This document shows positions 9,527 through 64,000 of a DNA stretch of 64,000 nt, piece after piece (position 1 is the first letter of the stretch; each line of letters begins with the position of its first letter). Location: the NCBI GenBank assembly GCA_018222765.1, contig JAAEZT010000018.1:1-64000 (forward strand), written 5' to 3'. A model generated the notes under the pieces. The model had not been told where the DNA came from, did not search any database, and saw only the letters and a program-made list of their open reading frames with translations. A program made the position numbers and the translations under genes. This stretch comes from a bacterium. GTDB lineage: Bacteria > Verrucomicrobiota > Verrucomicrobiia > Verrucomicrobiales > Akkermansiaceae.

Positions 9527-10427
9527 ACTCCGCCGCCGTCCCCATTCGGTGAACTTCCTTACAGATCGGATCGCAATAGCGTCCCGACTTTTCCTCGCAA
9601 TCCTTGCATACAATAAACTGGGCATTGCATGGCTGCCAAAGACAGTTGCGATAACGAATCGACGGCAATCCACACGAAACACACGTGGAGACCAACTTCG
9701 CTCCCGCCGTCCGATTCACCGGCACGGTTAAGCGTTCATCGAAGACATAGCATTCCCCCTCAAACCCCTCGCCCTTCGCTTCAGGATCTTTCCCGTAAGT
9801 CACGATCCCTCCATCCAGCTGGTAGACATCTTCTAGGCCCTCTTTTAAAAGAAAGCCACTGAATTTCTCGCAGCGAATTCCGCCCGTGCAGTAGGTAAGA
9901 ATCTTTTTGCCCTCCAATTCATCGCGATGGTCACGCACCCACTTGGGCATATCTCGAAAACTCGCCACCGGTGGAAGCATCGCCCCCTCGAATCGCCCTA
10001 CCTCCCACTCGTAATCATTTCGAGCATCGATCAAAACGATATTATCCTCCTTGATCGCTTCCTTCCACTCGGCTGGCTTCAAATGGGTTGCGGTGAGCTC
10101 CTCGGGGCTGAAATCCTCTTCGCCCAGCCCCAAAGTCACCACCTCATCCCGCACTTTGATCGATAGCTTGGGGAAAACATGCCCCTCCGACGGGTCAATT
10201 TTCCAGGCAATCTCTGCGGTGAGAGGATCTTTATCCAGTGTCTCACGGTATTTCTTACAATCCGCCGCCGTACCAGAAACCGTGCCGTTAATCCCCTCCG
10301 CAGCGATGAGAATCCGCCCTTTCAACCCCAACTGGCAGCAAAGTTTTCGATGCTCTTCAGCATAAGCGTCCGGATCGGCGATCCGACAATATTTATAGTA
10401 AAGCAATACCTCGAATGGAGCACTCAT
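9516..10427 (-). CDS. trhO: tRNA uridine(34) hydroxylase, rhodanese domain (UPF0176/TrhO)
   Basis: Members of this family form 5-hydroxyuridine at tRNA position 34. From the ATG at 10427 the product is 303 aa: an N-terminal acylphosphatase-like domain containing GRILIAAEGINGTVSG (residues 37-52), a rhodanese domain (about 120-225) with the active-site Cys180 in YCTGGIRCEKFSGFL, and a C-terminal Cys-rich tail with CxxC pairs that probably binds zinc. The open frame continues upstream, but only the later ATG gives the family N-terminus. It diverges from moxR across a 287-bp gap and overlaps the preceding convergent gene by 11 bp. Confidence 0.93.
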   Translation of the reverse strand: MSAPFEVLLYYKYCRIADPDAYAEEHRKLCCQLGLKGRILIAAEGINGTVSGTAADCKKYRETLDKDPLTAEIAWKIDPSEGHVFPKLSIKVRDEVVTLGLGEEDFSPEELTATHLKPAEWKEAIKEDNIVLIDARNDYEWEVGRFEGAMLPPVASFRDMPKWVRDHRDELEGKKILTYCTGGIRCEKFSGFLLKEGLEDVYQLDGGIVTYGKDPEAKGEGFEGECYVFDERLTVPVNRTAGAKLVSTCVSCGLPSIRYRNCLWQPCNAQFIVCKDCEEKSGRYCDPICKEVHRMGTAAEFTP

Positions 10428-10575
10428 GGGACGAACCTTCTTTGGCAGATTCGCTCCAAAAAATCCAGTGCGGTCTCGCCCAAAATTCCCTGCGCAGGAA
10501 AGACCTCCTATTTCTTGAGAGAAACCCACCAGATCGCTTGCCAAGGTCGGTCGCCCCTGTAGTCTTCCCTCTAGA

Positions 10576-10604
10576 TTGGAAACGAGGAAACTCTCTTCTT
10601 ATTA
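10576..10604 (+). promoter_or_regulatory. Candidate promoter upstream of moxR
   Basis: In the trhO/moxR divergent gap: TTGGAA (10576-10581), 17 bp, TTATTA (10599-10604). This is the best sigma-70-like spacing I find between 10428 and 10714, about 110 bp before the moxR ATG. Weak, motif-only evidence. Confidence 0.22.
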
Positions 10605-10714
10605 GTCGAAGAAAAAAGCGCCCCGGCTCCGTATCCCACAGACAAGTCTCCCCCTCCCATCCGCTCTTAAAGAAATCGTTTCCAAATCCACCGACGACCA
10701 CTCCAATTCTTATC

Positions 10715-11935
10715 ATGCTTGAATCCACTTCTCCCAGCACTTTTCGAAAAGCACCACCGGCCCGCCCCATCGAGCGATCCAAAGTCGAATATCAAATCCC
10801 GATCGAAACTCTCTCCGCTCCCGAAGTGAAGAAACAAGAATCCGCTCCAGAAAAGGAAGCCTCCGACGAATCCACTCCTGCGCCTGCCAAGGAAGCCCCA
10901 GCCGAAAGCACGCCCGCTCCGGCTGCGCCACCGGAAAGCCTCGAGGCCGACGACGTCGCTGCCATTGATCAACTCGGTAAAGTCTATCAAGACCTCAAAA
11001 CCGAACTCGGTAAAACCATTATCGGCCAGGAGAACGTCATCGAGGAACTCGCGATTTGTCTCTTTGCCCGCGGTCACGGACTCCTCATGGGTGTTCCTGG
11101 TCTCGCCAAAACCCTCCTCGTTTCCTCGGTCGCGGAAACCCTCCATCTGAATTTCAACCGAATTCAATTCACGCCCGACCTCATGCCCGCCGACATTTCT
11201 GGAACGGACATTATCCAAGACAACGGCGATGGTGGTAAACGCCAATTCGAATTCGTCAAAGGCCCCGTTTTTTCCAACGTCGTGCTCGCTGATGAGATTA
11301 ACCGGGCACCCGCCAAGACCCAGTCCGCCATGCTGGAGGCGATGCAGGAACGCCACGTCACTGTCCTTGGCCGAACCTACAAACTCGATGCGCCTTTCTT
11401 CGTCCTCGCGACGCAGAACCCCGTCGAGCAAGAGGGAACCTATCCTCTTCCCGAGGCACAGCTTGACCGCTTCATGTTCCTCATCGATGTCGACTACCCA
11501 ACTGCCGCCGAGGAAAAACGTATTGCCCGCGAAACAACCGGAGCTGACAAGGAACCTCTCAAGGCACTCCTTACCGGAGAAGAAGTTCTCAAATACCAAA
11601 GCCTCGTCCGCCGCGTTCCCGTGCCCGATCATATTTACGACTATGCCGTTGAGATTGTCCGGCGGACCCGTCCCGATGGCGAAGATGCCCCGGAGTGGAT
11701 CAAGGAATATGTGGGTTGGGGCGCCGGACCGCGTGCCGTGCAGTATCTCATTCTCGGTTGCAAAGCCCGCGCTGCGCTTCGTGGAACCTACATGGCTTCC
11801 CTCGAAGACATCGAAGCCGTCGCCCAGCCCGTTCTCAGCCACCGTGTTCTCACGAACTTTGCCGCCGAGTCCCAAGGAATGACCTCCAAGAAGATCGTCA
11901 AACGCCTCGTCGAAGAGATGCGGGAGGATTATTAA
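10715..11935 (+). CDS. MoxR-family AAA+ ATPase
   Basis: A 406-aa MoxR ATPase, a chaperone-like AAA+ protein that normally works with VWA-domain partners. The N-terminal 80 residues are a Pro/Ala/Glu-rich disordered extension. The ATPase core has Walker A GVPGLAKT (126-133), Walker B VVLADE (189-194), the INRAPAKTQSAMLEAMQE stretch, sensor region ATQNPVEQEGTYPL (232-245) and the C-terminal lid. The ATG at 10715 was chosen; the frame is open further upstream but that sequence is not family-like. It heads a four-gene operon with DUF58, BatA-like and VWA genes, the classical partners of MoxR. Confidence 0.93.
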   Translation: MLESTSPSTFRKAPPARPIERSKVEYQIPIETLSAPEVKKQESAPEKEASDESTPAPAKEAPAESTPAPAAPPESLEADDVAAIDQLGKVYQDLKTELGKTIIGQENVIEELAICLFARGHGLLMGVPGLAKTLLVSSVAETLHLNFNRIQFTPDLMPADISGTDIIQDNGDGGKRQFEFVKGPVFSNVVLADEINRAPAKTQSAMLEAMQERHVTVLGRTYKLDAPFFVLATQNPVEQEGTYPLPEAQLDRFMFLIDVDYPTAAEEKRIARETTGADKEPLKALLTGEEVLKYQSLVRRVPVPDHIYDYAVEIVRRTRPDGEDAPEWIKEYVGWGAGPRAVQYLILGCKARAALRGTYMASLEDIEAVAQPVLSHRVLTNFAAESQGMTSKKIVKRLVEEMREDY

Positions 11936-11976
11936 GATCCACCCGGAATCCCTCCTGACTTCCCCAGGCTTCCCGT

Positions 11977-12870
11977 ATGAAATACGACTTCCTCGACACT
12001 GACGTCCTCGCCCGACTTGGGGCGATCCCGTTGGAGTCCCGTTTTCCCATGGTGGGAAATGTCGCAGGACGTCACCGTTCTCCGCACCGGGGATCTTCCG
12101 TCGAATTCGCGGAATACCGCAAGTATGTTCCCGGTGACGACACCCGTCGTCTCGACTGGAAAGCCTACGCACGCTCCGACCGATACTACATTAAAGAGTT
12201 CGAGGCCGACACCAACCTGCGGGCCTATTTCGTTGTCGATACTTCCGGGTCGATGGATTTTACCTCAGGAGAAAACCCCTCCAAGATCGACTTCGCCAAG
12301 AAGATTGCCGCCACTCTGGCCTACCTCATCGTCAACCAGGGCGACTCCGCGGGACTCTCGTGTTGCAGCGAAAAGCTTCACCTCGAAATCCCACCGAGCC
12401 GACGCGCCGCCCAACTGCAGCACATTTTCGAAACCCTCAAAGACATCGAGCCTACCGGCGAAACCGGACTCGTTCACGCGCTCCACCAAATCGCCGAGAA
12501 AACCCAACAACGCGCTCTCGTCATTATCCTCTCCGACCTCTTCGTTGAGACCGAGAAGCTGGCCGACGCTCTCCAGCACCTTCGCTTCCGCAAGCACGAC
12601 ATCGCGATGTTCCATCTTCTCGATCCGCAGGAAGTGGATTTCCATTTCGAGCGACCTCATCGCTTTGTCGACCTTGAAGATGGTAGCGTCGTCGTAGCTG
12701 AACCGAACCTTATCGTCGACGAATACCACGAGGCTCTCCGCGAATTCCTCGAGACCGTGGAGACCAAGTGCCACAACGTGCATGCCGATTACCACCTTCT
12801 CCAAACCAACGCGAACTACGAAAAAGTCGTTTCCGATTTCATCACCTCACGCCTGACCAAAAAACGCTAG
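11977..12870 (+). CDS. DUF58 / VWA-like protein
   Basis: A 297-aa cytosolic protein of the DUF58 family. The signature EYRKYVPGDDTRRLDWKAYA lies at residues 46-65, followed by a VWA-like fold with an intact MIDAS-type DTSGSM (88-93). Such proteins are encoded next to MoxR ATPases in many bacteria and are presumed to be their partners. It sits 41 bp after moxR and 9 bp before the batA-like gene on the same strand. No signal peptide or membrane helix is present. Confidence 0.92.
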   Translation: MKYDFLDTDVLARLGAIPLESRFPMVGNVAGRHRSPHRGSSVEFAEYRKYVPGDDTRRLDWKAYARSDRYYIKEFEADTNLRAYFVVDTSGSMDFTSGENPSKIDFAKKIAATLAYLIVNQGDSAGLSCCSEKLHLEIPPSRRAAQLQHIFETLKDIEPTGETGLVHALHQIAEKTQQRALVIILSDLFVETEKLADALQHLRFRKHDIAMFHLLDPQEVDFHFERPHRFVDLEDGSVVVAEPNLIVDEYHEALREFLETVETKCHNVHADYHLLQTNANYEKVVSDFITSRLTKKR

Positions 12871-12879
12871 CCCTCCCAG

Positions 12880-14868
12880 TTGAATTTCCTTGTTCCAGCC
12901 GCCCTTCTTGGGCTTTTTGCCGCCGCTATTCCGGTGATCATTCACCTGCTCAACCGGCGGCGCTTCCGCACCATCAAATGGGCGGCAACAACCTTCTTAT
13001 TGAAAGCTTCCCGGGAGTCACGGGGCAAAAAGCGACTCAAACACATCCTAATTTTAGCCTGCCGGACGCTCGCCATCGCCGCGCTCATTTTTGCGGTTGC
13101 GCGTCCGCTCATCGGCAACTGGCTGGGCTGGGGCGGAGGCTCGGTGGAAACAGTGGTCCTCGTCCTCGACCGATCAGCCAGTATGGAAACCCGCGAGGGT
13201 GACGGCTCACCAAGTAGGCGCGAAGCCGTCGTCAATCGAATTGCCGACGCCATCAAAAACATGGGCTCCCCCCGCCTCGTTATCATCGATAGTGCCTCCG
13301 GAGAGATTCAAGACGTTCCCTCACCTGATGTCCTCCCCGAATTAACTTCAACCCAGGGCACCGACACACAAGCCGACATCCCTGTCTTGATTACTAAGGC
13401 CATCGACTACCTTCAGGAAACCAAGCCCGGGAAATCAGAAATTTGGGTCGCCTCGGATCTACAACGAAGCGATTGGCGTCCCGATGATTCGAGATGGCTC
13501 GCCATTCAAAGCGGCATCAAAGCGCTTCCCACCAAAACCTCGCTTCGTATTCTTGCCTCTGGATCCGAAATTATCCCGAACTACTCACTCGAACTTCTGG
13601 CCTCCCGCCGTATCGAGGACGACCTCCTTCTCGATCTCAAAATTTCCCGCAGCAAAGGCCAGTCCGAGGCCTCTATTCCACTCACTATTTCTCTGATGGG
13701 CGCCCGAAGCACCGATCCTGAACGCGTCACTATCAGCGGTCAGGAGGTTCGTCTACAAAAGCGTATCCCCCTCGGAGAGATTAAAGAAAGCGGATACGGC
13801 TGGGTCGGACTACAAACCGACAACAACCCGCGCGATAACGCCGTCTTTTTTGCCTTTGGCGAAAAAGAACCCGTCTATTCGTGGTTGGTCGCCGAAGATC
13901 CCTCCAGCGAAGTCGCCGGATACCTTCAAAGATCAGCCGCCCCAACCGGATTTGACCGCTTCAGCTGCGAAATCGTCTCCCCAGTTCAAACAACCAAAAT
14001 CAACTGGAGTACCGCGTCCCTCATAATTTGGCAGGCTCCGCTGCCCACCGGTGCCGTCGCCTCACAGATGGCGGAATTCGTAAAATCCGGTGGGTCCGCT
14101 ATTTTTTATCCGCCCGAGGAACCCTCTACAGAAGCAATCTTCGGAATGTCCTGGGGCCCCGTAATCAACGCTCCGGACGACGAGTTTTTCATCAACGGGG
14201 TCTGGACCCGCGACGACGGCCCGTGGCAGGACGGTCAAACCGGCACGCCCCTTCCGGTCAAGGAACTGAGAAGTATCAAACGCCGGAGCATTCAGGGCGA
14301 CGCCGCGACTCTCGCGGAATGGGATGACAAATCACCGCTGCTCCTTCGTCAGATCGATGGTGTTGGCACGGCTATTTTTGTCGGAACTCTTCCCGATGAC
14401 CGGTGGTCCAACATGGAATACACCGCGCTTCATCTCGTCGCAAACCAACGCATGATCCAACTTGGCACCGACCGCCTTCACGCCGGTTACCGCGCCATTG
14501 CTGGGAGCGAAAAGTCGCAAACGCAAGATGACGAAATTCGCTCCCGCCTAGACAACTTCGAAGACTACGAACCATCACTCGGACCTTACCGAAGTGGCGT
14601 CTACCGGCTCGGCGAACGCACCGTGGCCGTCAACCGCCCCAACAGCGAGGGGGATCTCGAACGGGTCAACGAGGAAAGCCTCGACAAACTTCTCGAGGAC
14701 ACGCCTTACTCACTTTTCGAAGACACCAAGACCAAGGACGACCTCATCAGCGAAGCTTGGAAAGCATTTTTGGTTGCCGTTCTTCTCTTCATGCTTGCTG
14801 AGGCAATCCTCTGCTTGCAGCCACGCCCCAGCGCTGCTCCCGTTACCAATCCCTCGCCCGCGTCGTGA
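12880..14868 (+). CDS. BatA-domain membrane protein with VWA domain
   Basis: A 662-aa protein starting at a TTG (12880), which gives the expected BatA start MNFLVPAALLGLFAAAIPVI. Residues 1-77 form the aerotolerance BatA-type domain with two membrane segments (about 5-25 and 57-77) and the basic linker HLLNRRRFRTIKW. A VWA domain follows with the MIDAS DRSAS (97-101). The long C-terminal part is probably periplasmic and ends with a third membrane helix near residue 635 (AFLVAVLLFMLAEAIL). It overlaps the next gene by four bases (GTGA), implying translational coupling. Confidence 0.9.
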   Translation: MNFLVPAALLGLFAAAIPVIIHLLNRRRFRTIKWAATTFLLKASRESRGKKRLKHILILACRTLAIAALIFAVARPLIGNWLGWGGGSVETVVLVLDRSASMETREGDGSPSRREAVVNRIADAIKNMGSPRLVIIDSASGEIQDVPSPDVLPELTSTQGTDTQADIPVLITKAIDYLQETKPGKSEIWVASDLQRSDWRPDDSRWLAIQSGIKALPTKTSLRILASGSEIIPNYSLELLASRRIEDDLLLDLKISRSKGQSEASIPLTISLMGARSTDPERVTISGQEVRLQKRIPLGEIKESGYGWVGLQTDNNPRDNAVFFAFGEKEPVYSWLVAEDPSSEVAGYLQRSAAPTGFDRFSCEIVSPVQTTKINWSTASLIIWQAPLPTGAVASQMAEFVKSGGSAIFYPPEEPSTEAIFGMSWGPVINAPDDEFFINGVWTRDDGPWQDGQTGTPLPVKELRSIKRRSIQGDAATLAEWDDKSPLLLRQIDGVGTAIFVGTLPDDRWSNMEYTALHLVANQRMIQLGTDRLHAGYRAIAGSEKSQTQDDEIRSRLDNFEDYEPSLGPYRSGVYRLGERTVAVNRPNSEGDLERVNEESLDKLLEDTPYSLFEDTKTKDDLISEAWKAFLVAVLLFMLAEAILCLQPRPSAAPVTNPSPAS

Positions 14869-17111
14869 ACAACTTCAACCTAGGACCGCTCCACTTCCAG
14901 ACGAATATTTTCGTTCTGGTATTCGTCGTGATCGTCCTGATCGCAACCGCAGGTCTTTGCGTCACCGCAGTCCGGCGCTCGGCCCGACCCAGGCGAACCG
15001 GAATCTTGGAGGCCATTCGCTTCGTCTGTGTTCTCTTCGTTTCCATTATGCTTCTCGGACCCGAGTGGCGCACCGTTCAAGAATCCGACCTCCAACCGGA
15101 AATCGTCATCGTGACGGACGAATCCCTCTCTATGAGCACGACCGATGCCCGTGTTCCCGAGGCCATGGAAAGTGAAGAACAAGTCATTACCCGCGAGAAG
15201 CTCGTCGACAACCTTCTCGCTTCGGAATTCTGGAAACCCTTCGAGGCAGAAAGTAAAAACCGCGTCACCCTTTCCACCTTCGGCGCCCCGCCTGTAGACA
15301 CCGACCCGGCTCTCCGCGCCATGGCCGGCACGGACATCAATGATGCCTTGCAGAAGATCCTCGAGGCGGGACGCAATCTCCGCGCCGTCGTTATGCTTGG
15401 AGACGGCGACTGGAACATCGGCAAGTCTCCGGTTGCGGCAGCCCAACAATTCCGTCTTAAAGATGTCCCGCTATACGCTTTGGGCACCGGATCCCAGCAA
15501 CGCCTCCCCGACCTTGATCTTGATTCGGTGAACGCTCCCACCTACGGTATTGTCGGTGAGAACGTGCAGATTCCATTCACCATTCAGTCCTCTTTGGGAC
15601 GCGATGTCCGCACCATCGTTCGCATTCGCAGCGACAGCGGAAAAGAACGCACCAAGGACATCACCATTCGCGCCAACTCCACGCATTATGATTCCATCTT
15701 GTGGCGAATTGAAAAAGAAGGCGCTTCCACTCTCAGCCTTAGCATCCCGACAACCAATGGTGAATTGGTGCAAAGCAACAACAGCCGTGATTTTATTATC
15801 AGTGGAAAACCGGAATCGATTAAAGTCCTCGTGGTGGAAACGCTTCCCCGCTGGGAATACCGTTTTATCCGCAACGCCCTCTCCCGTGACCCGGGTGTCG
15901 ATGTCGATTGCCTGCTCCTCCACCCCAACCTCGGCAAAGGTGACGGGCCCGACTATATTCAAGAGTTTCCCGAAAATCTCGAGGATCTCCAAAAATATGA
16001 TGTCGTTTTTGTCGGCGATGTCGGCCTTAGTGAAGACGGCGGATCCGGGCTCACCACCGAGCAGGCCAATCTGATCAAAGGACTCGTCGAAAATCAGGCT
16101 AGCGGTGTGGTTTTCATTCCGGGTGCACAGGGAAACCAATTCATGTTGGAAGAAACCGAACTCTACGACCTGATTCCGGTCATTCTCGACAAGGATAATC
16201 CAACGGGCCTCAGTGACTCCATCGATGCGTCGATGCGACTTACTTCCGAAGGTGAGAGGTCGCTGCTGACGATGCTCGGAGACGACGAAACCGAGAACGA
16301 ATTGATCTGGCAGGATCTTCCCGGATTCTATTGGCAAGCTCCTGTCGTGAAAGCCAAGGCAGGCACCACTGTTCTCGCCGTAAACGCCAATCGAAGCAAT
16401 GCCTCCGGACGTCTTCCCATCCTCGTCACTTCACGCGCCGGGGCCGGTAAGGTTCTCTACATGGCCACCGACTCCGCCTGGAGATGGCGTCGTGGTGTGG
16501 AAGACCTTTACCACTACCGTTTCTGGGGACAGGTCGCTCGTTGGATGTCCTACCAACGAAACATGGCCGCCGGAGAACGCGTTCGCCTTTTCTACACTCC
16601 CGAACGCCCCAAACCCGGCGACCCGGTTTTCCTTTCTGCCAACGCTTTTTCAGAAAACGGCGCTCCACTCACCGAAGGTAATCTTCAGATAGACCTCACC
16701 GCTCCAAACGGCACCAGCCAACGCATCGAACTCGCCCAAGACGACGCCTCCTGGGGTTCCTTCAGCGGACAGTTTAAAATCAGGCAGCCGGGAGCCTGGG
16801 GCGTCAAAGCCTTCATCGCCGGCGATGATTCAGCCTTCATCGAAACCAAAATCATTTCCCAAACCGACGACATCGAAAAAACAGGCCTTCCTGCTCGCTT
16901 CGAAGTCCTCGAAGAAATGACCAAGGTGTCACGCGGTCGACTCGTAACCGCTGCCCAATTGGAGGAATTAGTCAAAGAAATTAACGCCCTTCCCGAACCC
17001 CAGCCTCTTGTTGATTCAATCAAACTCTGGGCCCACTGGCTGGCTCCGACCATTCTCGTCATTCTCTTATCCCTCTTCTGGATGGGACGGAAATTGAACG
17101 GAACATTCTAG
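14865..17111 (+). CDS. Membrane-anchored VWA / glutamine-amidotransferase-like protein
   Basis: A 748-aa protein starting at GTG 14865, overlapping the preceding stop. Two N-terminal membrane helices (about 14-36 and 50-66) precede a VWA domain with TDESLS as the MIDAS (Asp85-x-Ser87-x-Ser89). An Ig-like segment (about 205-310) and a class-I glutamine-amidotransferase-like region (from about 315, IKVLVVETLPRWEYRFIRNA) follow; I see no obvious catalytic Cys triad in it. A C-terminal helix (LAPTILVILLSLFWMG) ends the protein. It completes the MoxR-DUF58-BatA-VWA operon; the set is thought to act on the envelope, but its substrate is unknown. Confidence 0.85.
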   Translation: MNNFNLGPLHFQTNIFVLVFVVIVLIATAGLCVTAVRRSARPRRTGILEAIRFVCVLFVSIMLLGPEWRTVQESDLQPEIVIVTDESLSMSTTDARVPEAMESEEQVITREKLVDNLLASEFWKPFEAESKNRVTLSTFGAPPVDTDPALRAMAGTDINDALQKILEAGRNLRAVVMLGDGDWNIGKSPVAAAQQFRLKDVPLYALGTGSQQRLPDLDLDSVNAPTYGIVGENVQIPFTIQSSLGRDVRTIVRIRSDSGKERTKDITIRANSTHYDSILWRIEKEGASTLSLSIPTTNGELVQSNNSRDFIISGKPESIKVLVVETLPRWEYRFIRNALSRDPGVDVDCLLLHPNLGKGDGPDYIQEFPENLEDLQKYDVVFVGDVGLSEDGGSGLTTEQANLIKGLVENQASGVVFIPGAQGNQFMLEETELYDLIPVILDKDNPTGLSDSIDASMRLTSEGERSLLTMLGDDETENELIWQDLPGFYWQAPVVKAKAGTTVLAVNANRSNASGRLPILVTSRAGAGKVLYMATDSAWRWRRGVEDLYHYRFWGQVARWMSYQRNMAAGERVRLFYTPERPKPGDPVFLSANAFSENGAPLTEGNLQIDLTAPNGTSQRIELAQDDASWGSFSGQFKIRQPGAWGVKAFIAGDDSAFIETKIISQTDDIEKTGLPARFEVLEEMTKVSRGRLVTAAQLEELVKEINALPEPQPLVDSIKLWAHWLAPTILVILLSLFWMGRKLNGTF

Positions 17112-57250: not shown

Positions 57251-58300
57251 CTACTCTTCGTCCACGGTTTCGTCCCGCTGGTAGATCGGCAATTGACGAT
57301 ACGGAACGGAAAACGCCAGGGTCATCATCGCGGTTCCATAGATTCGTCCGGCTTCCTTGCTATACCAAGATCCATCCTCTTTCTGCTTGGACAAGTAGGT
57401 CTCGTACATCCAATTCGCGAAGGTTTCCCAATGCTTTCCGCCAATCTGAAACATGGCTTGGGCGTTGTAATAGTTTCCGTAGAATTCGAACTGCCGGCCT
57501 TCGAGGCCACGGAAATTCTGCAAAATATAATCGGCCGATTTAAGAGTGGCCGGCTTTCCGTGCTCGCCGCAAAGCTCCAAACAAAGAAGACCCATTCCAG
57601 TGAGGGATAACTTATGGTTGTTCGGGTCCGAGTAGCCAAAGTGCCCGCCTCTCTCCGAGAAATTTCCATAGAGATACTTGAGCGCACTCTCAATCGCCTG
57701 ATCGGGAACCGGAGCTCCGTTTAGTTTGGCCGAACGAAGAGCCATCAAAGCCCATCCGCTGCATGAAGTATCGGAATCCTTGGAATTGGGATGATAGCGC
57801 CAGCCGCCTTTGTGGCGGTCGGATTTATTTACCGCCTGGGCCCGCAAAATCAATGCGACCGCTTTCGGAAGACTTTCGCCAATTTTCTTTTGGCGTTCGG
57901 GGTCTACCATTCCGGATGCCTCGGACAAAAACAAGGTGGCGATGTTGTGAGCATACATGGGACCACTCCCCGCATGCCCGGCAGTATAGAGACCATCACG
58001 ATTCTGGTGCTCGAGAATATAGTCGATCGACCTATTCAAAGCCTCGGCATACGGCCCCTCGGTGGCAAGGTGTCCCCGTGAGAGGAATGCCATGCCAACG
58101 AGAGCAGGAATTCCACAGGAGGTTCCATAATTTTCCGGAAAACTACCGTCATCCTGCTGAATTCCTGCGAGAAACTGAAGTCCCCGCTCAATCGAAGGGT
58201 CAACCTTCTCCTTCCATTTAGCAAAGAGAGCGTCGGGAGCATCCTGCGCATTTCCAGCAGGAATGATAATCAAAGCGAGAAAGAGAGAGAGAAAACGCAT
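57251..58300 (-). CDS. Secreted alpha/alpha-toroid protein (prenyltransferase/squalene-cyclase-like repeats)
   Basis: A 349-aa exported protein (leader MRFLSLFLALIIIPAGNA). It is built from helical repeats with QDDGSFPENYG, NRDGLYTAGH, GWRYHPNSKD and EDGSWYSKEAG, the Gly-Ser/Trp turns of terpene-cyclase-like toroids. The acidic DxDD catalytic motif of cyclases is not evident, so it may be a non-enzymatic binder. Its ATG overlaps the stop of the DUF4175-like gene by one base, which ties the two functionally. Confidence 0.82.
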   Translation of the reverse strand: MRFLSLFLALIIIPAGNAQDAPDALFAKWKEKVDPSIERGLQFLAGIQQDDGSFPENYGTSCGIPALVGMAFLSRGHLATEGPYAEALNRSIDYILEHQNRDGLYTAGHAGSGPMYAHNIATLFLSEASGMVDPERQKKIGESLPKAVALILRAQAVNKSDRHKGGWRYHPNSKDSDTSCSGWALMALRSAKLNGAPVPDQAIESALKYLYGNFSERGGHFGYSDPNNHKLSLTGMGLLCLELCGEHGKPATLKSADYILQNFRGLEGRQFEFYGNYYNAQAMFQIGGKHWETFANWMYETYLSKQKEDGSWYSKEAGRIYGTAMMTLAFSVPYRQLPIYQRDETVDEE

Positions 58301-61300
58301 TATTGCTCTTTGGATACTTGTTCAAAATATTGCTTCACGAGACCGCGATAGTCTTCCGGAACAACCTCCCCGGCGGCCCCACTGACGTCAGTCTTCAAAG
58401 TTGCACGAATCTTCTCCCAGTCTTTGGTCGTGATTCCGAGTTTTGCCAGTTGCGGCGGGATGCCTTTGTCACCCTGCGCCTGACGATCTCCTTCCTGGGG
58501 GTCGTCACCTTCACCCTCACCCGGCTCTCCTTTCCCTTTTCCTTTTGCGGCCTGACCATCCATCGGCTGACCTGGCTGACCATTTTGGGACATTGCCGAT
58601 CGAGCTTGCTGGGCAGCTTGCGCGAGGGCTTCAGCCGCAGCTTGGGCGCTTTCAGCGGCTTGTTGGGCATCGCCGGCTTGGGCTGCCTCGGCACTTTGTT
58701 CGAAAGCCTCCGCCAATGGTTCGCCGGGTGCAGGAGCCTTGCGATCACTCAGCTCTTGTTGGGCAGCCTGCTCGGCTTGCTGCGCAAAGTTTTCCGCAGC
58801 TTGACTGAGGGCATTTTCAGCTTGCTCCAGATGTTCGGAGGCTTGCTGATTCTGCTGTGAGGCCTGTTGGGAATTCCCGGCTTCATTTGCTTGCGCCGCT
58901 TGTTCGGCGCGCCTTGATGCTTGTTGGGTCTGGCTGCGCGCGTTTGCCAATTGATCACTGCCAGCTTGCGCAAAGTCCTGCACCTCCTCGGCGAGATCGG
59001 CCGCACGGTCCGCCTGCATTTCTTCGAGAGCTGCCAAAGCCTCCCCGGTATCTCCCTCTGCAAGAGCCTCCAGCGCCTCCGCGACTTGTTCCTGACGTTC
59101 CTGTAATTCTTGTTGACTGGCTGACTCACTGGCACCCTTTGCCAATTCCTCGGATGCCTGATTGGCTGCTTCAGCAGCATCGGCAGCTTGATTCTCCTGC
59201 GCGCTTTCCAGAGCGGCTTCAGCTTGTGCCACCGCCTCGGGGAGATCATTGGCACGGGGCTCGCTATTACTGCGGGCATCACTCAACTCTTCCTTCACAT
59301 CTTCGACAATAGCCTCCTGCTCCTTAGCCAAGGCTTCCGCAAGCGCGTCGGAAAAAGCGCTTTCCTGAGCCTCCTCCAAAGCCGCCTTGGCTTCTTCGGT
59401 ATTTCCTTCGGCCAAGGCTTCAAATGCTTCGGCAACCTTTTCTTGTCTCTCCTGAAGGTTTTGCTGACTAGGCGATTCTTCCGCACCTTGAGCTAATTCT
59501 TCAGCTGCATTTTGAGCGGCTTCGGCAGCCTCTTGAAACTCATCACTCTTTGCGCCTTCCAACGCCTCTTCACCCTGAGCGAGTGCTTCCGAAAGATTTT
59601 CAGCACGAGATTCTTCATCGCCCTTAGCTTCTTCGTTACCCTCGGCTTGGTCGTTACCCTGAGCTTCTTCGGTGCCTTGGGCTTCTTCGTTACCCTGAGC
59701 TTCTTCGTTACCCTGGGCTTGGTCGTTACCCTGAGCTTCTTCGTTACCCTGAGCTTCTTCGTTACCCTGAGCTTCTTCGTTACCCTGGGCTTCTTCGTTG
59801 CCCTGGGCTTCCGCCAACTCTTCTTTAATGTCCTGATTAATTTGTTCCTGCGCTTGCGCTAATGCATCGGCAATTTTTTCCTCCGTTGTCGGCTGATCCT
59901 GCGAGGCCAATTCCGCCAGATTTTCCTGCGCTTCTTTTAGGTCTTCAGCCTTCTCGGCAAGATCCTGAGCTTTCTCAGCCTGATTTTCCAGAGCAGCAGA
60001 CTTAGCTTCTGGTGACTGACGAACCTGTTCCCTGATTTCGTTCTCAACCTGCTCTTGTTGCCTCTGCCAATCCTGCTCGGGGGGAGTGTCGGCATTCTCC
60101 GCATTTTCGGCAGCTTGCGAAGCTTCTTGAGCCAATTGATCTTGTTTTTGAGCAAGCTCCTCAAGCTTGGCAAGGTCTTCAATTTTCGGATGATCCTTGT
60201 TCACTTCATTCAAGAGCTCTCTGAGTTCGTCAACTGCCTCTGTGGAATTCCTTATGGCGCTATCGATTTCCTCTTTCCGGGATTCGTCGGTATCTTGCAG
60301 CGGAGCTCTCTCCACTTCCTTGCGAGCTTCAGCAAGCTTATCAATCGTTTCCTCCAACTCATCCCGCCGATGGGCCTGAACGCTGTCTTTCATTCGCTCG
60401 GAAAGATCGGTGAGATCTTTTTCAACCTCAGCAAGCTTGTCGCGAGCTTCATTCATGGCTTCAAGAGCCTGCTCAGGAACCTCTTCCTTCCTAAGTTGGG
60501 CTTTGGCCTGATGCATCTTGGCCTTCGCCTTGTGGACATCAGCGATTGCCTTTTCGATGGTCTTCGTAAGGTCTGAATGCTTCTCATGCAATTCCTGTCT
60601 CACCAAAGAAGCCGCCCCTTTGTTAATCTTAATTTCAATCCATTCGGAATACCCCACTCCCGGCCCCTCCAAATCCGCCGGGCGGTTATCGCTAATGGCG
60701 AGGCGAATTTTAAACTCGCGCGGGTTCTTTATTTTAGGAAGAAGGCTTCCCAAGTAAATCATCGCTTCTCCCTCCCAAAGGTTCGGGCGTAGGTCGGGCT
60801 TTTTCTCAGGAAGAAGTTCGCTTAACGATTCTAGCTTCTTCCCTCCAACTTCAATTTCAATCTCCGCTTTGCTGAGGCCAATCTTCTCGAAAACTTCGTA
60901 ATTTAATACAATTTGATCATCCGGCCGGATTTTCAATTCCCGTTGAAACGGGCTAAGAATTTTTACGGCAGGCGCCTCGTCAATCAGCGACTCAATCGAA
61001 AAACTACCTCCTTGCAGCTCGCGACCCAATTTGTGGGTCACCATCAAAGTCGCATTCCCGAGAGTCTCCGGAACAATTGTTTGGGTCCAGCGAAAGCTGG
61101 ATCCATTGGCCGAGTTTTCGACTTCTACATCGCCAAGCTCCTTGGATTCAAAAAGGAGTTGTCCGCTTTTGATCGGAGAGTCGAAAGTCCCGGTAACGGT
61201 CACCTGTGTTCCAGGAAGGGCCTTAATCCCACCATTGAGAGCCTCGGATCGATCGGACCAACCGGTGTATTCCGGATATTGATAGCGAACGACGCCATCC

Positions 61301-62160
61301 CGCAGAAGAGGAATCGGCCAGACCCTCACTTCAAATTGATCGCTTTCACTCCTGCCGACTCTGGCCGAGTAAAAGAAGCCATTCTTGGCCGAAGGCAAAT
61401 GATATTGGAAGGTGTGCTTTTGTCCTTCGCTTGAGACAGGGCTCAGCGACTCGGATAACACCTCACCATCCTTGGTCACCAAAAAATCAAGATCGCCATT
61501 AAGTTCTCCTTCATAGGTCATTTCGATCATGACCTCGTCACCCTCGAGAACTTCCAAATCCCCAGGATTAATAGTGAAGCGGAATGCGCCGACATTCCCG
61601 AGATCAGAAAATGGTGACACCGCCCGTGAAAGAAGACGTGTCATTTCCCGGGGCCAAATCACCATAAGCGAAATTAAGGCCACAACCATAACCGCAGCCG
61701 GCCAGAGCGATTTTTTGACTCGCTCTGAGCGAACTTCGTCGTTGGGATTCAACTCACCAACATCCTTGGCTGCATCCTTTGAAAGTGCGCGAAGAAGGTC
61801 TCGGGACATTCCTTCGGGATGATCCGACAGCTCCAGGGCGGTGCTGATACGCTCCTGAACTTCCGGGTGGCGTTCCTCAAGCCAACGGGCCAATCGGACT
61901 AAGGAAATTTTTCGGGTCAACGGCCTAAGTAAAAAGCGGAAAACTCCGTATGCGGCGGCCACCATCCAACAAAAGAAAGCCGCCGCGCGAACGCCGGAAG
62001 ACAAGGGAGCCAAAAAATAATCCAGCGCGATCAGTGTCAAGAGACCGCCCAAAACAACGGAAAGAACCCGCAAGAGGCCCCTACCAAGTTGAATTCGCCT
62101 AATCCGCCGCCTGATAGCTCTTAGGCCGGAGGTGATTTCGGGAGGAAAATTCGATGCCAT
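58300..62160 (-). CDS. Giant DUF4175-like membrane protein with coiled coil and repeats
   Basis: A 1286-aa protein. Residues 1-80 have two membrane helices and a third lies near 158-175; a beta-rich exported region (about 190-430) contains Ig-like strands, and from about residue 460 the protein is an Ala/Glu/Gln/Lys-rich coiled coil. An 18-bp, 11-unit repeat encodes residues 785-850, and two 81-residue copies of one unit lie at 852-932 and 969-1049. The C-terminus is Gln/Ala-rich and ends with a small globular segment containing GITTKDWEKIRATLKTDVSG. The alternative ATG is 62169. Such proteins accompany MoxR/VWA operons in Planctomycetes and Verrucomicrobia; function is unknown. Confidence 0.8.
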   Translation of the reverse strand: MASNFPPEITSGLRAIRRRIRRIQLGRGLLRVLSVVLGGLLTLIALDYFLAPLSSGVRAAAFFCWMVAAAYGVFRFLLRPLTRKISLVRLARWLEERHPEVQERISTALELSDHPEGMSRDLLRALSKDAAKDVGELNPNDEVRSERVKKSLWPAAVMVVALISLMVIWPREMTRLLSRAVSPFSDLGNVGAFRFTINPGDLEVLEGDEVMIEMTYEGELNGDLDFLVTKDGEVLSESLSPVSSEGQKHTFQYHLPSAKNGFFYSARVGRSESDQFEVRVWPIPLLRDGVVRYQYPEYTGWSDRSEALNGGIKALPGTQVTVTGTFDSPIKSGQLLFESKELGDVEVENSANGSSFRWTQTIVPETLGNATLMVTHKLGRELQGGSFSIESLIDEAPAVKILSPFQRELKIRPDDQIVLNYEVFEKIGLSKAEIEIEVGGKKLESLSELLPEKKPDLRPNLWEGEAMIYLGSLLPKIKNPREFKIRLAISDNRPADLEGPGVGYSEWIEIKINKGAASLVRQELHEKHSDLTKTIEKAIADVHKAKAKMHQAKAQLRKEEVPEQALEAMNEARDKLAEVEKDLTDLSERMKDSVQAHRRDELEETIDKLAEARKEVERAPLQDTDESRKEEIDSAIRNSTEAVDELRELLNEVNKDHPKIEDLAKLEELAQKQDQLAQEASQAAENAENADTPPEQDWQRQQEQVENEIREQVRQSPEAKSAALENQAEKAQDLAEKAEDLKEAQENLAELASQDQPTTEEKIADALAQAQEQINQDIKEELAEAQGNEEAQGNEEAQGNEEAQGNEEAQGNDQAQGNEEAQGNEEAQGTEEAQGNDQAEGNEEAKGDEESRAENLSEALAQGEEALEGAKSDEFQEAAEAAQNAAEELAQGAEESPSQQNLQERQEKVAEAFEALAEGNTEEAKAALEEAQESAFSDALAEALAKEQEAIVEDVKEELSDARSNSEPRANDLPEAVAQAEAALESAQENQAADAAEAANQASEELAKGASESASQQELQERQEQVAEALEALAEGDTGEALAALEEMQADRAADLAEEVQDFAQAGSDQLANARSQTQQASRRAEQAAQANEAGNSQQASQQNQQASEHLEQAENALSQAAENFAQQAEQAAQQELSDRKAPAPGEPLAEAFEQSAEAAQAGDAQQAAESAQAAAEALAQAAQQARSAMSQNGQPGQPMDGQAAKGKGKGEPGEGEGDDPQEGDRQAQGDKGIPPQLAKLGITTKDWEKIRATLKTDVSGAAGEVVPEDYRGLVKQYFEQVSKEQ
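59014..59256 (-). repeat. 81-codon duplication, copy 2
   Basis: Codons 969-1049 of the DUF4175-like gene align without gaps to codons 852-932 (59365-59607); I count 54 of 81 identical residues. The best-kept part is LQERQEQVAEALEALAEGDT. Confidence 0.8.
59365..59607 (-). repeat. 81-codon duplication, copy 1
   Basis: Codons 852-932 of the DUF4175-like gene, the partner of the copy at 59014-59256. It starts one codon after the hexapeptide repeat ends. Both copies are exactly 243 bp. Confidence 0.8.
59611..59808 (-). repeat. 11 x 18-bp tandem repeat
   Basis: Eleven in-frame copies of an 18-bp unit, on the plus strand TTCTTCGTTACCCTGAGC, encode the hexapeptide E-E-A-Q-G-N with variants D-Q-A-Q-G-N, E-E-A-Q-G-T and A-K-G-D. 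Several adjacent units are identical at DNA level, which suggests recent slippage. Confidence 0.92.
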
Positions 62161-62207
62161 CTTAATCATACGACACAAAAAGAACGGTCTGTCAGCCGTA
62201 ATAGGAA

Positions 62208-62867
62208 TTAGTCAGTTGCCACTTTTCCGTCCTTAATCGTGAAAACACGGTCTCCCAACCCCGAAAGCGAAGAATCGTGGGTCACTACCACCAGTGTGGC
62301 ATTCTGCTCCTCAACTACTTCCATGAGGATTTTCATCACCTCATCGCCATTGGCCGAATCAAGATTACCCGTGGGCTCATCGGCAAAAATGATCGAGGGA
62401 CTGTTCACCAGGGCCCTCGCAATAGCCACTCGTTGCTGTTCACCACCTGACAATTCCGCAGGCAGGTGATCGACCCGTTTGGCAAGCCCCACCCTCGCCA
62501 AGGCCTCCTCGGCCTGTTCCCTATGGGAAGCTCCTCCAATCAAGCCGGGAACCATGACATTTTCGAGTGCAGTCAGCTCAGGCAGGAGAAAGTAATTTTG
62601 AAAGATATAGCCGATCTTTTCATTTCGCAGCCGGGCCTGATGAGACGACGACATATTGTAAAAATCGACATCGCCAATGTAGACCTGCCCCTTTTTTGGA
62701 GATTCCAATCCGGCAAGGGTATACATCAGGGTCGTCTTTCCTGCTCCACTGGGGCCACAGAGAAAGACCTTTTCACCGGCATTGATCTCAAGATCAATAC
62801 CCTTGAGGACTTCAATCTCTTTTTTCCCGAGATGATAAGAGCGGTGAACCTGTTTTGCTCGAATCAT
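62208..62867 (-). CDS. LolD/MacB-type ABC transporter ATP-binding protein
   Basis: A 219-aa ABC ATPase of the LolD/MacB/FtsE group. Walker A GPSGAGKTT (38-46), Q-loop IFQNYFLLPELTALENV, signature LSGGEQQR (139-146) and Walker B IIFADE (159-164) are intact. A partner permease is not in the window; LolD itself works with LolCE in lipoprotein export. Its ATG overlaps the gspF stop by four bases, an unexpected pairing. About 40 bp separate it from the DUF4175-like gene. Confidence 0.9.
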   Translation of the reverse strand: MIRAKQVHRSYHLGKKEIEVLKGIDLEINAGEKVFLCGPSGAGKTTLMYTLAGLESPKKGQVYIGDVDFYNMSSSHQARLRNEKIGYIFQNYFLLPELTALENVMVPGLIGGASHREQAEEALARVGLAKRVDHLPAELSGGEQQRVAIARALVNSPSIIFADEPTGNLDSANGDEVMKILMEVVEEQNATLVVVTHDSSLSGLGDRVFTIKDGKVATD

Positions 62868-64000
62868 TTTCCGCCGATGCTTTGGATGGTTTGGAAAATC
62901 GCGGTAATCATGAGGTAGGCCATCGACCCAATCAAAAGGGCCATCACTAAAAGTACAGCCGGCATAATTAGGGCCATGATTCGCTGAAGGGCATTGTTTA
63001 GCTCCTTATCAAAGCGAACCCCCGCTTTGCGAAGCGCGATATCAATCTTTCCGGTCTGCTCACCCACAGTCACCATATCGATCAAGAGAGGTGAGAAAAC
63101 TCCGCTCCGCATCATCGATGCTGAAAGAGAGCGGCCATCTCCTACCCAATCAACCATCTCGGTGAGATGAGATCGAATGAAGAGATTTTGTGTCGCGTCT
63201 CGGGTCAATTCCAGAGCCCTCAACAGGGGCAGTCCATTACCAACCAGATTCGCCATCGTCTCCAAGAACTGAACATAAAATCGTCGTTCGATTACGGCCC
63301 CAAAAAGCGGAAGTTTTAACTTCATCCGGTCCCAAGTAGGACGGTTGTCTTCGTTGTCTTTCCAGGCTTTAAACAAAATCGCCCCCGCACCAAGCGCAAG
63401 CGCGATGACCAGCCACCATTTCCCAAAAAAATTGGAAGCCCCCATCATGATCTGCGCACCGAGGGGAATCTTACTCCCAGGCGTGCTTTCGAGGAGTCCC
63501 ACCAATTGCGGGATCAACTTTGTTACAAAAACAATTCCCACGCCAATCCCAGCCATAATGAGGAAGGCTGGATAAATCATCGCCAAAATCACCTTCCCCT
63601 GCAGTTCCTGCAAGGTCTTCAAATAGTGAGCCTGTCGGTCGAGAATGGTATCGAGAGCACCACTGGCCTCTCCGGCCGCAGCCAGACTGCAATATAGAGG
63701 ACCGAAGCTGGGACTCACTCGCTTCAGGGAAGAGGAAAAAGAATTACCATCCCGCACCAGCTGACGAATTTTGGTCGAAACCGCCTTGAGACCTCCGAGT
63801 TCCTGACGATTTTCCATCGCCCGAAGAGCAGGCTCCAATTGCAGTCCCGCCGAGAGCATGTCCGAGAGTTCCTCGGTAAAGAGCACGACGTCAGCGCGCT
63901 TAAGCTTCACCGGCCCGTCGGGGATTTCCTCATCGGCGACCACAGGTTTCCCCGGAGCAGCTGGTTTCGCGGCGGCCCCTTTTTTCTTGGGTTCTGCGCC
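62864..64000 (-). CDS. Type II secretion/type IV pilus inner-membrane protein, GspF family (5' end beyond window)
   Basis: The visible 378 codons run off the right edge. They contain the two GspF repeats: LFTEELSDMLSAGLQLEPAL and FYVQFLETMANLVGNGLPLL, each followed by membrane helices (about 130-155, 180-200 and the C-terminal AVLLVMALLIGSMAYLMI). Upstream of the first repeat is an Ala/Pro/Lys-rich linker, so the true start lies outside. GspF is the inner-membrane platform of type II secretion or pilus assembly. No gspE or pilin gene is in the window. Confidence 0.9.
   Translation of the reverse strand, partial: GAEPKKKGAAAKPAAPGKPVVADEEIPDGPVKLKRADVVLFTEELSDMLSAGLQLEPALRAMENRQELGGLKAVSTKIRQLVRDGNSFSSSLKRVSPSFGPLYCSLAAAGEASGALDTILDRQAHYLKTLQELQGKVILAMIYPAFLIMAGIGVGIVFVTKLIPQLVGLLESTPGSKIPLGAQIMMGASNFFGKWWLVIALALGAGAILFKAWKDNEDNRPTWDRMKLKLPLFGAVIERRFYVQFLETMANLVGNGLPLLRALELTRDATQNLFIRSHLTEMVDWVGDGRSLSASMMRSGVFSPLLIDMVTVGEQTGKIDIALRKAGVRFDKELNNALQRIMALIMPAVLLVMALLIGSMAYLMITAIFQTIQSIGGK

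What the first reader, a model, noticed from the sequence alone, without database searches (positions are those of the whole stretch)
57251..64000. Coupled GspF, LolD-like ATPase, giant coiled-coil and toroid protein operon
GspF and LolD overlap by four bases, and the giant protein and the toroid by one base, so all four are probably translated together. A secretion platform, an export ATPase, a membrane coiled-coil scaffold and an exported helical toroid make a candidate undescribed envelope or secretion apparatus.
Basis: partly seen in the sequence, partly recalled or inferred. Interest (0 to 1): 0.55.

Follow-up and report, generated by a model that had tools for sequence, protein, structure and literature searches.

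The report
MoxR-linked scaffold and toroid pair
Two of the four neighbouring genes, a giant membrane scaffold and an exported ring-shaped protein, are real partners that belong to a larger ATP-driven envelope machine common in Verrucomicrobiota, while the other two are ordinary genes that lie beside them only in this species and its closest relatives.

Summary
The four genes and their overlaps are real, but they are not a four-part apparatus. Giant and toroid are adjacent in 73 of 80 loci found by toroid similarity; LolD and GspF precede the giant in only 2 of the 48 loci with enough flank, both close relatives; in 29 of those 48 the gene before the giant is "v809", last of a MoxR-DUF58-BatA-v809 quartet. 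The window's genome keeps that quartet on another contig, C21. Among 40 family genomes, giant and v809 orthologues occur in the same 17 (one v809 as fragments) and in none of the other 23, though unlinked in at least six. GspF and LolD orthologues ignore this pattern. The giant has three predicted TM helices, Ig-like domains, a long acidic helical body and remote DUF4175 similarity. The toroid is a confident squalene-cyclase-type ring without the DxDD motif. Best reading: scaffold and ring of a six-gene MoxR/VWA envelope machine whose operon is split here. I found no description of this architecture in the searched library; its biochemical role is inferred.

The parts
57251..58300 (-). Toroid: 349 aa, N-terminal signal-like segment, squalene-cyclase-type (alpha/alpha) ring, invariant LPIYQRDE tail
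   Evidence: Pfam SQHop_cyclase_C E 8e-11; model pLDDT 90.6, pTM 0.88; VIA Z 27.6 to 2sqc; DxDD 0 of 43, LPIYQRDE 43 of 43
58300..62178 (-). Giant: 1292 aa from TTG (1286 aa from the ATG at 62160); three predicted TM helices (about 34-52, 66-84, 157-175), Ig-like domains (about 196-519), helical acidic body, conserved C-terminal motif DW..IR....VPEDYR.LVKQYF
   Evidence: DUF4175 matched by 33 of 47 aligned N-terminal parts at E <= 0.01, not by the window member
59621..59811 (-). 18-bp tandem array, 10.6 copies, inside the giant, encoding the variable QGNEEA-type hexapeptide repeat
62208..62867 (-). LolD-type ABC ATPase; neighbour, not part of the giant-toroid system
   Evidence: TIGR02211 is the best of 191 families, 252.7 bits (cut-off 307.75); found in 38 of 40 family genomes
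62864..64000 (-). GspF-type platform protein (gene continues to contig position 64141; GspE just upstream); neighbour, not part of the system
   Evidence: PF00482 172.7 bits; found in 33 of 40 family genomes
10415..17111 (+). Second, paralogous MoxR-DUF58-BatA-v809 cluster in the same window, without a detected giant or toroid next to it

Best explanation
Giant and toroid are the two envelope-side end components of a six-gene machine: MoxR AAA+ ATPase, DUF58 VWA protein, BatA VWA/PA14 membrane protein, v809 BatA-like membrane protein, giant, toroid. Shown: the gene order, the complete co-occurrence in the family sample, and the operon split in this genome. Inferred: the cytosolic MoxR ring uses ATP to work on the DUF58 VWA domain and, through BatA and v809 in the inner membrane, on the giant. 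The giant's Ig and helical body would stand in the periplasm and hold the toroid, which would act as a binding or docking ring for an envelope client during its assembly or remodelling. GspE-GspF (secretion or pilus motor) and LolD (lipoprotein release) are housekeeping-type neighbours that came to lie next to the displaced pair in one small clade.
For: Giant adjacent to toroid in 73 of 80 loci, stop/start overlap in 51 of those 73; v809 directly before the giant in 29 of 48 loci with flank, LolD and GspF in 2 of 48, neither in 17 of 48. Of 20 regions taken from the phylum-wide search and two own-genome contigs, 7 show v809-giant-toroid in order with the rest of the cluster as far as the region reaches (one with an unmatched stretch before the toroid), 10 have a giant next to or near the toroid. 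Co-occurrence: giant orthologue (E <= 1e-144) in 17 of 40 family genomes; v809 orthologue (E <= 1e-260) in 16 of those 17, the 17th (G021) holding contig-edge fragments and an intact BatA, and in none of the other 23; unlinked in at least G000, G031, G008, G021, G024, G007. Within one genus G024 has both, G011 and G034 neither. Controls: GspF in 33 of 40, LolD in 38 of 40, so in 16 and 21 of the 23 giant-less genomes. Own quartet at C21 with MoxR Walker A and MIDAS-like DxSxS motifs in DUF58 and BatA. MoxR/VWA mechanism: PMC9976466 (passages).
Against: In the window genome the pair is not linked to the quartet; 17 of 48 loci have neither neighbour; 10 of 20 regions show no detectable giant, so toroids also occur alone. 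Contact between giant and toroid was not modelled. Membrane topology, the client and the chemistry are inference. The 40 genomes are related, so the co-occurrence (nominal 1.1e-11) is overstated by shared ancestry. Bat proteins in Leptospira biflexa gave no phenotype on deletion (PMC3557215, passages).
Confidence: 0.75

Rival explanations
1. The four genes (with GspE) form one secretion or envelope apparatus.
For: Tight spacing and overlaps, same strand; same order in G031 and in two database contigs. GspF-LolD adjacency also in G008, G021 and, by coordinates, G015.
Against: LolD and GspF before the giant in 2 of 48 loci and 2 of 17 giant-bearing genomes; GspF-LolD adjacent in 5 of 33 genomes holding both; both widespread in genomes lacking the giant.
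Confidence: 0.05
2. The toroid is an enzyme (terpene-cyclase-like or acting on envelope glycans) and the giant is its membrane holder; the MoxR quartet only matures it.
For: Many enzymes share the fold: squalene-hopene cyclase Z 27.6, cellobiose 2-epimerase Z 24.6, GH76 mannanase Z 23.8; very strong conservation of the ring.
Against: DxDD absent from 43 of 43; no Pfam family beyond the SQHop_cyclase domains for the window toroid; no active site identified.
Confidence: 0.15
3. The giant is an AdvA-like (DUF4175) cell-division factor and the toroid its periplasmic partner; the MoxR quartet helps to assemble a divisome-linked complex.
For: DUF4175 matched by 33 of 47 giants; AdvA, with two predicted TM helices, is essential, at midcell, and its depletion causes filaments (PMC7481262, passages). 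The gene after the toroid here is FtsK.
Against: Similarity is remote and below threshold in the window protein; FtsK follows the toroid in only 2 of 80 loci; 23 of 40 family genomes do without the giant.
Confidence: 0.1

Closest known systems
MoxR-Bat (Bacteroides aerotolerance) clusters, e.g. Leptospira batABD with moxR
   Same: MoxR ATPase, BatA-type VWA membrane protein, envelope location, gene clustering
   Different: The passages read name no giant Ig/helical membrane protein and no squalene-cyclase-type toroid
MoxR/VWA pairs NorQ-NorD, RavA-ViaA, CbbQ-CbbO
   Same: AAA+ ring plus VWA partner, the likely engine
   Different: Those work on cytosolic or membrane enzyme clients (partly recalled); here the set ends in probably exported components
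DUF4175 proteins (AdvA of Acinetobacter baumannii)
   Same: N-terminal TM helices; remote sequence similarity in 33 of 47 giants
   Different: Window protein below threshold; the AdvA paper has no mention of MoxR or DUF58
Squalene-hopene cyclase (class II terpene cyclase)
   Same: Alpha/alpha toroid fold and QW-like repeats
   Different: 349 aa instead of about 630, signal-like N-terminus, DxDD absent in 43 of 43
Type II secretion / type IV pilus GspE-GspF and LolCDE
   Same: The upstream neighbours belong to these families
   Different: Not linked to giant-toroid outside the closest relatives

Membership tests
MoxR-DUF58-BatA (Bat-type) system | MoxR AAA_3 ATPase, DUF58 and BatA proteins encoded together in the genome | tested here: met
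   C21 quartet: AAA_3 204.9 bits, DUF58 135.9, BatA 55.7, all over cut-off
MoxR-DUF58-BatA (Bat-type) system | Giant and toroid linked to that quartet in relatives | tested here: met
   v809 directly before giant in 29 of 48 loci; 10 of 17 giant-bearing family genomes
MoxR-DUF58-BatA (Bat-type) system | Giant and toroid linked to that quartet in the window genome | tested here: not met
   Quartet on C21, pair on C49
MoxR-DUF58-BatA (Bat-type) system | Giant co-occurs with the quartet's v809 even when unlinked | tested here: met
   17 of 40 genomes have both (one v809 fragmentary), 23 neither
MoxR-DUF58-BatA (Bat-type) system | Physical complex of the products | not testable with these tools
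   No interaction data
LolCDE lipoprotein release | ATPase reaches the LolD model cut-off | tested here: inconclusive
   TIGR02211 best but 252.7 against 307.75 bits
LolCDE lipoprotein release | LolC/E permease encoded beside the ATPase | tested here: not met
   0 of 8 FtsX matches on C49; a LolC/E-type permease on C42 scores 237.4 bits, under its cut-off of 362.45
Type II secretion / type IV pilus | GspF and GspE present and adjacent | tested here: met
   T2SSF and T2SSE over cut-off
Type II secretion / type IV pilus | Secretin and pseudopilin genes | not tested
   No search for them was run
Class II terpene cyclase (squalene-hopene cyclase) | Fold | tested here: met
   2sqc Z 27.6, rmsd 2.6, 278 aligned
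Class II terpene cyclase (squalene-hopene cyclase) | DxDD acid motif (recalled as defining) | tested here: not met
   0 of 43 sequences
Alpha-macroglobulin thioester domain | CxEQ thioester motif (recalled) | tested here: not met
   0 of 43 sequences; considered because the L038 toroid hits TED_complement weakly
DUF4175 (PF13779) | Match over the family cut-off | tested here: inconclusive
   Window giant E 0.55; 33 of 47 aligned N-terminal parts at E <= 0.01, best 5.5e-10

The most novel reading that the evidence does not exclude
A six-component MoxR-driven envelope machine of Verrucomicrobiota, with a cytosolic AAA+ ring and VWA adaptor, VWA membrane proteins, a periplasmic Ig/helical scaffold of 1000 to 3700 residues and a non-catalytic squalene-cyclase-fold ring, has spread into several paralogous versions per genome and handles a still unknown envelope client. 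It would be the first MoxR system I know of with a dedicated periplasmic scaffold and docking ring.
Probability: 0.45. Interest if true: 0.6.

Novelty: new variant of a known kind. Interest (0 to 1): 0.38.

Why it matters
It turns a misleading gene neighbourhood into a testable system. MoxR-Bat proteins are widespread and their purpose is unsettled (Leptospira deletion gave no phenotype, PMC3557215, passages). A conserved scaffold and ring at the end of the gene set point to an envelope client and give two baits for finding it. It also warns that overlapping genes in one genome need not be functional partners.

Tried and rejected
Four-part secretion apparatus: rejected on neighbourhood and co-occurrence. 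LolD as export ATPase for the toroid: rejected, since its orthologues lie away from the giant in 15 of 17 genomes and no FtsX permease is on this contig; the ORFs around four other-genus LolD orthologues were listed but not run against Pfam. Toroid as terpene cyclase or macroglobulin thioester domain: motifs absent. Known defence system: no PADLOC match for six proteins. MoxR/vWA conflict systems of PMC7159879: the paper holds no DUF58 or squalene term (passages). Solved-structure sequence search with the giant: nothing. Fold search of the giant N-terminal part gave only generic Ig-like matches, Z about 10 with large rmsd; its TM part was barely tested. Archaeal pilus paper PMC4858521 (passages) notes MoxR/vWA genes near archaeal pili and a squalene cyclase in Thermococci pilus loci; this is the only print hint of a pilus link found, and it concerns other organisms. 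Literature searches for the combination; none described the six-gene set in the titles, abstract starts or passages seen, but most subscription papers are not held.

Rows set aside: the co-occurrence count uses orthologue thresholds (giant E <= 1e-144, v809 E <= 1e-260); weaker paralogous matches occur in several giant-less genomes. G020 is not counted as unlinked because its giant contig begins, and its v809 contig ends, at the junction. One search counted 48 of 80 loci for the gene before the giant (2.6 kb or more upstream and a giant piece of 600 aa or more). One search kept 80 of 92 confirmed loci. The toroid fold used 42 of the 59 locus sequences listed plus the window; the giant fold used 46 of the 59 listed there plus the window. 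The profiles were built from loci and, for MoxR, from earlier loci; some of the loci they were then applied to are the source of the MoxR profile.

Full report
What is there. The window lies on a contig of a genome whose closest records are Akkermansiaceae/Verrucomicrobiales metagenome assemblies. LolD and giant are separated by 29 nt, or 47 nt from the likelier ATG start. GspE lies 12 nt upstream of GspF outside the window, preceded by an 858-aa TPR protein, a Sir2 protein and MnmE. FtsK follows the toroid on the same strand.

Neighbourhood in relatives. In 40 family genomes the giant has an orthologue (E <= 1e-144) in 17. In all 17 the toroid sits at its C-terminal end; in three of these (G016, G027, G037) the giant is broken by contig ends and its C-terminal piece lies beside the toroid on another contig. 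Upstream of the giant, v809 comes first in 10 of 17. GspF-LolD comes first in 2 of 17: the window genome and G031, whose giant is about 95% identical. In G008, G021, G007 and G024 neither is there, and in G020 the contig ends. GspF orthologues exist in all 17, but away from the giant in 15; in the single-contig G019 genome GspF, LolD and giant lie at 5.41, 5.73 and 0.58 Mb. A separate scan by toroid profile gave 80 loci. Giant is adjacent to toroid in 73; of the 7 others, two begin inside the toroid gene and one has 1.1 kb before it. Of 48 loci with enough flank, v809 precedes the giant in 29, LolD and GspF in 2, neither in 17.

The six-gene set. Pfam names the upstream genes in L038 as MoxR (AAA_3), DUF58, BatA with VWA and PA14, and a fourth protein, here called v809, with a weak MG2 match. 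The window's genome keeps an orthologous quartet on contig C21, with Walker A and DxSxS motifs. Thus the operon is split here and the distal pair lies elsewhere. Paralogous versions with the same order occur: with profiles, MoxR-DUF58-BatA-v809-giant-toroid is seen in L081, L085, L088 (toroid after a short gap), L231, L235, L236 (MoxR cut), L238, L241 and L246 (unmatched stretch before the toroid). Of the 20 regions fetched, 7 carry the set as far as the region reaches, 10 have a giant by the toroid, and 10 show none; toroid matches at E <= 1e-20 occur in 102 of 288 phylum genomes. So the set is widespread in the phylum, but toroids also occur without it.

Co-occurrence without linkage. v809 orthologues (E <= 1e-260) occur in 16 of the 17 giant-bearing genomes; the 17th, G021, has contig-edge fragments and an intact BatA. 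None of the other 23 has one at that level. At least six of the 17 are unlinked. The nominal Fisher probability is 1.1e-11, overstated by relatedness; by genus, six hold both and ten hold neither, and one of the six is itself mixed in concert (G024 both, G011 and G034 neither). The controls behave differently: GspF is in 33 of 40 and LolD in 38 of 40, including 16 and 21 of the 23 giant-less genomes. GspF and LolD are adjacent to each other in 5 of the 33 genomes with both (G000, G031, G008, G021, G015).

The proteins. Giant: three hydrophobic helices; the predicted structure of residues 1-545 has mean pLDDT 86.9 (pTM 0.64), with helices to about 187 and beta domains from 201 to 518 that match tandem Ig domains (titin Ig81-83, Z 10.0, rmsd 9.2, 250 aligned). 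The rest is rich in Glu, Gln and Ala, net charge -89 over residues 761-1292, with an 18-bp tandem array, in a family of 1028 to 1633 aa among 57 compared. The C-terminal end is the best conserved part (mean 0.73 in 1241-1280). DUF4175 is matched by 33 of 47 aligned N-terminal parts but not by the window member. Toroid: a 349-aa model with pLDDT 90.6, nearest to squalene-hopene cyclase, Z 27.6, rmsd 2.6, 278 aligned; DxDD and CxEQ absent from 43 of 43, LPIYQRDE tail in 43 of 43. LolD: best family TIGR02211 but under cut-off, as are its other-genus orthologues in L254 and L256; a LolC/E-type permease lies on C42.

Mechanism. In MoxR/VWA pairs the AAA+ ring works on a VWA adaptor whose MIDAS site contacts the client (PMC9976466, passages). 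By analogy, MoxR and DUF58 would act in the cytosol, BatA and v809 would pass the action across the inner membrane, and giant and toroid would carry it into the periplasm. The gene order and co-occurrence are shown; the topology is predicted; the transmission, the contact of toroid with giant, and the client are inferred. The Leptospira Bat study found no phenotype and leaves the function open (PMC3557215, passages).

Verdict. The finding's four-gene grouping is particular to one small clade; a different and more interesting grouping lies behind half of it. It is a variant of the known MoxR/VWA kind, not a new secretion apparatus.

Noticed in passing
window 10415-17111: A second MoxR-DUF58-BatA-v809 cluster in the same window, paralogous to the C21 quartet (v809 27% identical), with no giant or toroid detected beside it.
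   Followed up: partly
L073, L074, L244, L245 (own contigs C21, C2, C43, C74): The genome holds four toroid-family genes and three giant-like genes; C2 carries BatA-v809-giant-toroid in order up to its contig end.
   Followed up: partly
window 59621-59811: 18-bp tandem array in the giant; giant length varies strongly among relatives (1028 to 1633 aa), which suggests a length-adjustable spacer.
   Followed up: partly
L237:3656-14698: A giant-family ORF of 3680 aa next to a toroid in another family of the phylum.
   Followed up: no
L231:13104-15271 and L088:3-2296: Two toroid genes in tandem at the end of the MoxR cluster.
   Followed up: no
L026:2180-2500: The Sir2 gene upstream is shortened in G031: residues 57 to 192 of the window genome's protein are not matched.
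   Followed up: no
L005:6229-8805: An 858-aa TPR protein precedes GspE in the window genome and in G031; its role and wider conservation were not examined.
   Followed up: no
L232: Toroid directly followed by MoxR-DUF58-BatA, a different order, with no giant detected between.
   Followed up: no
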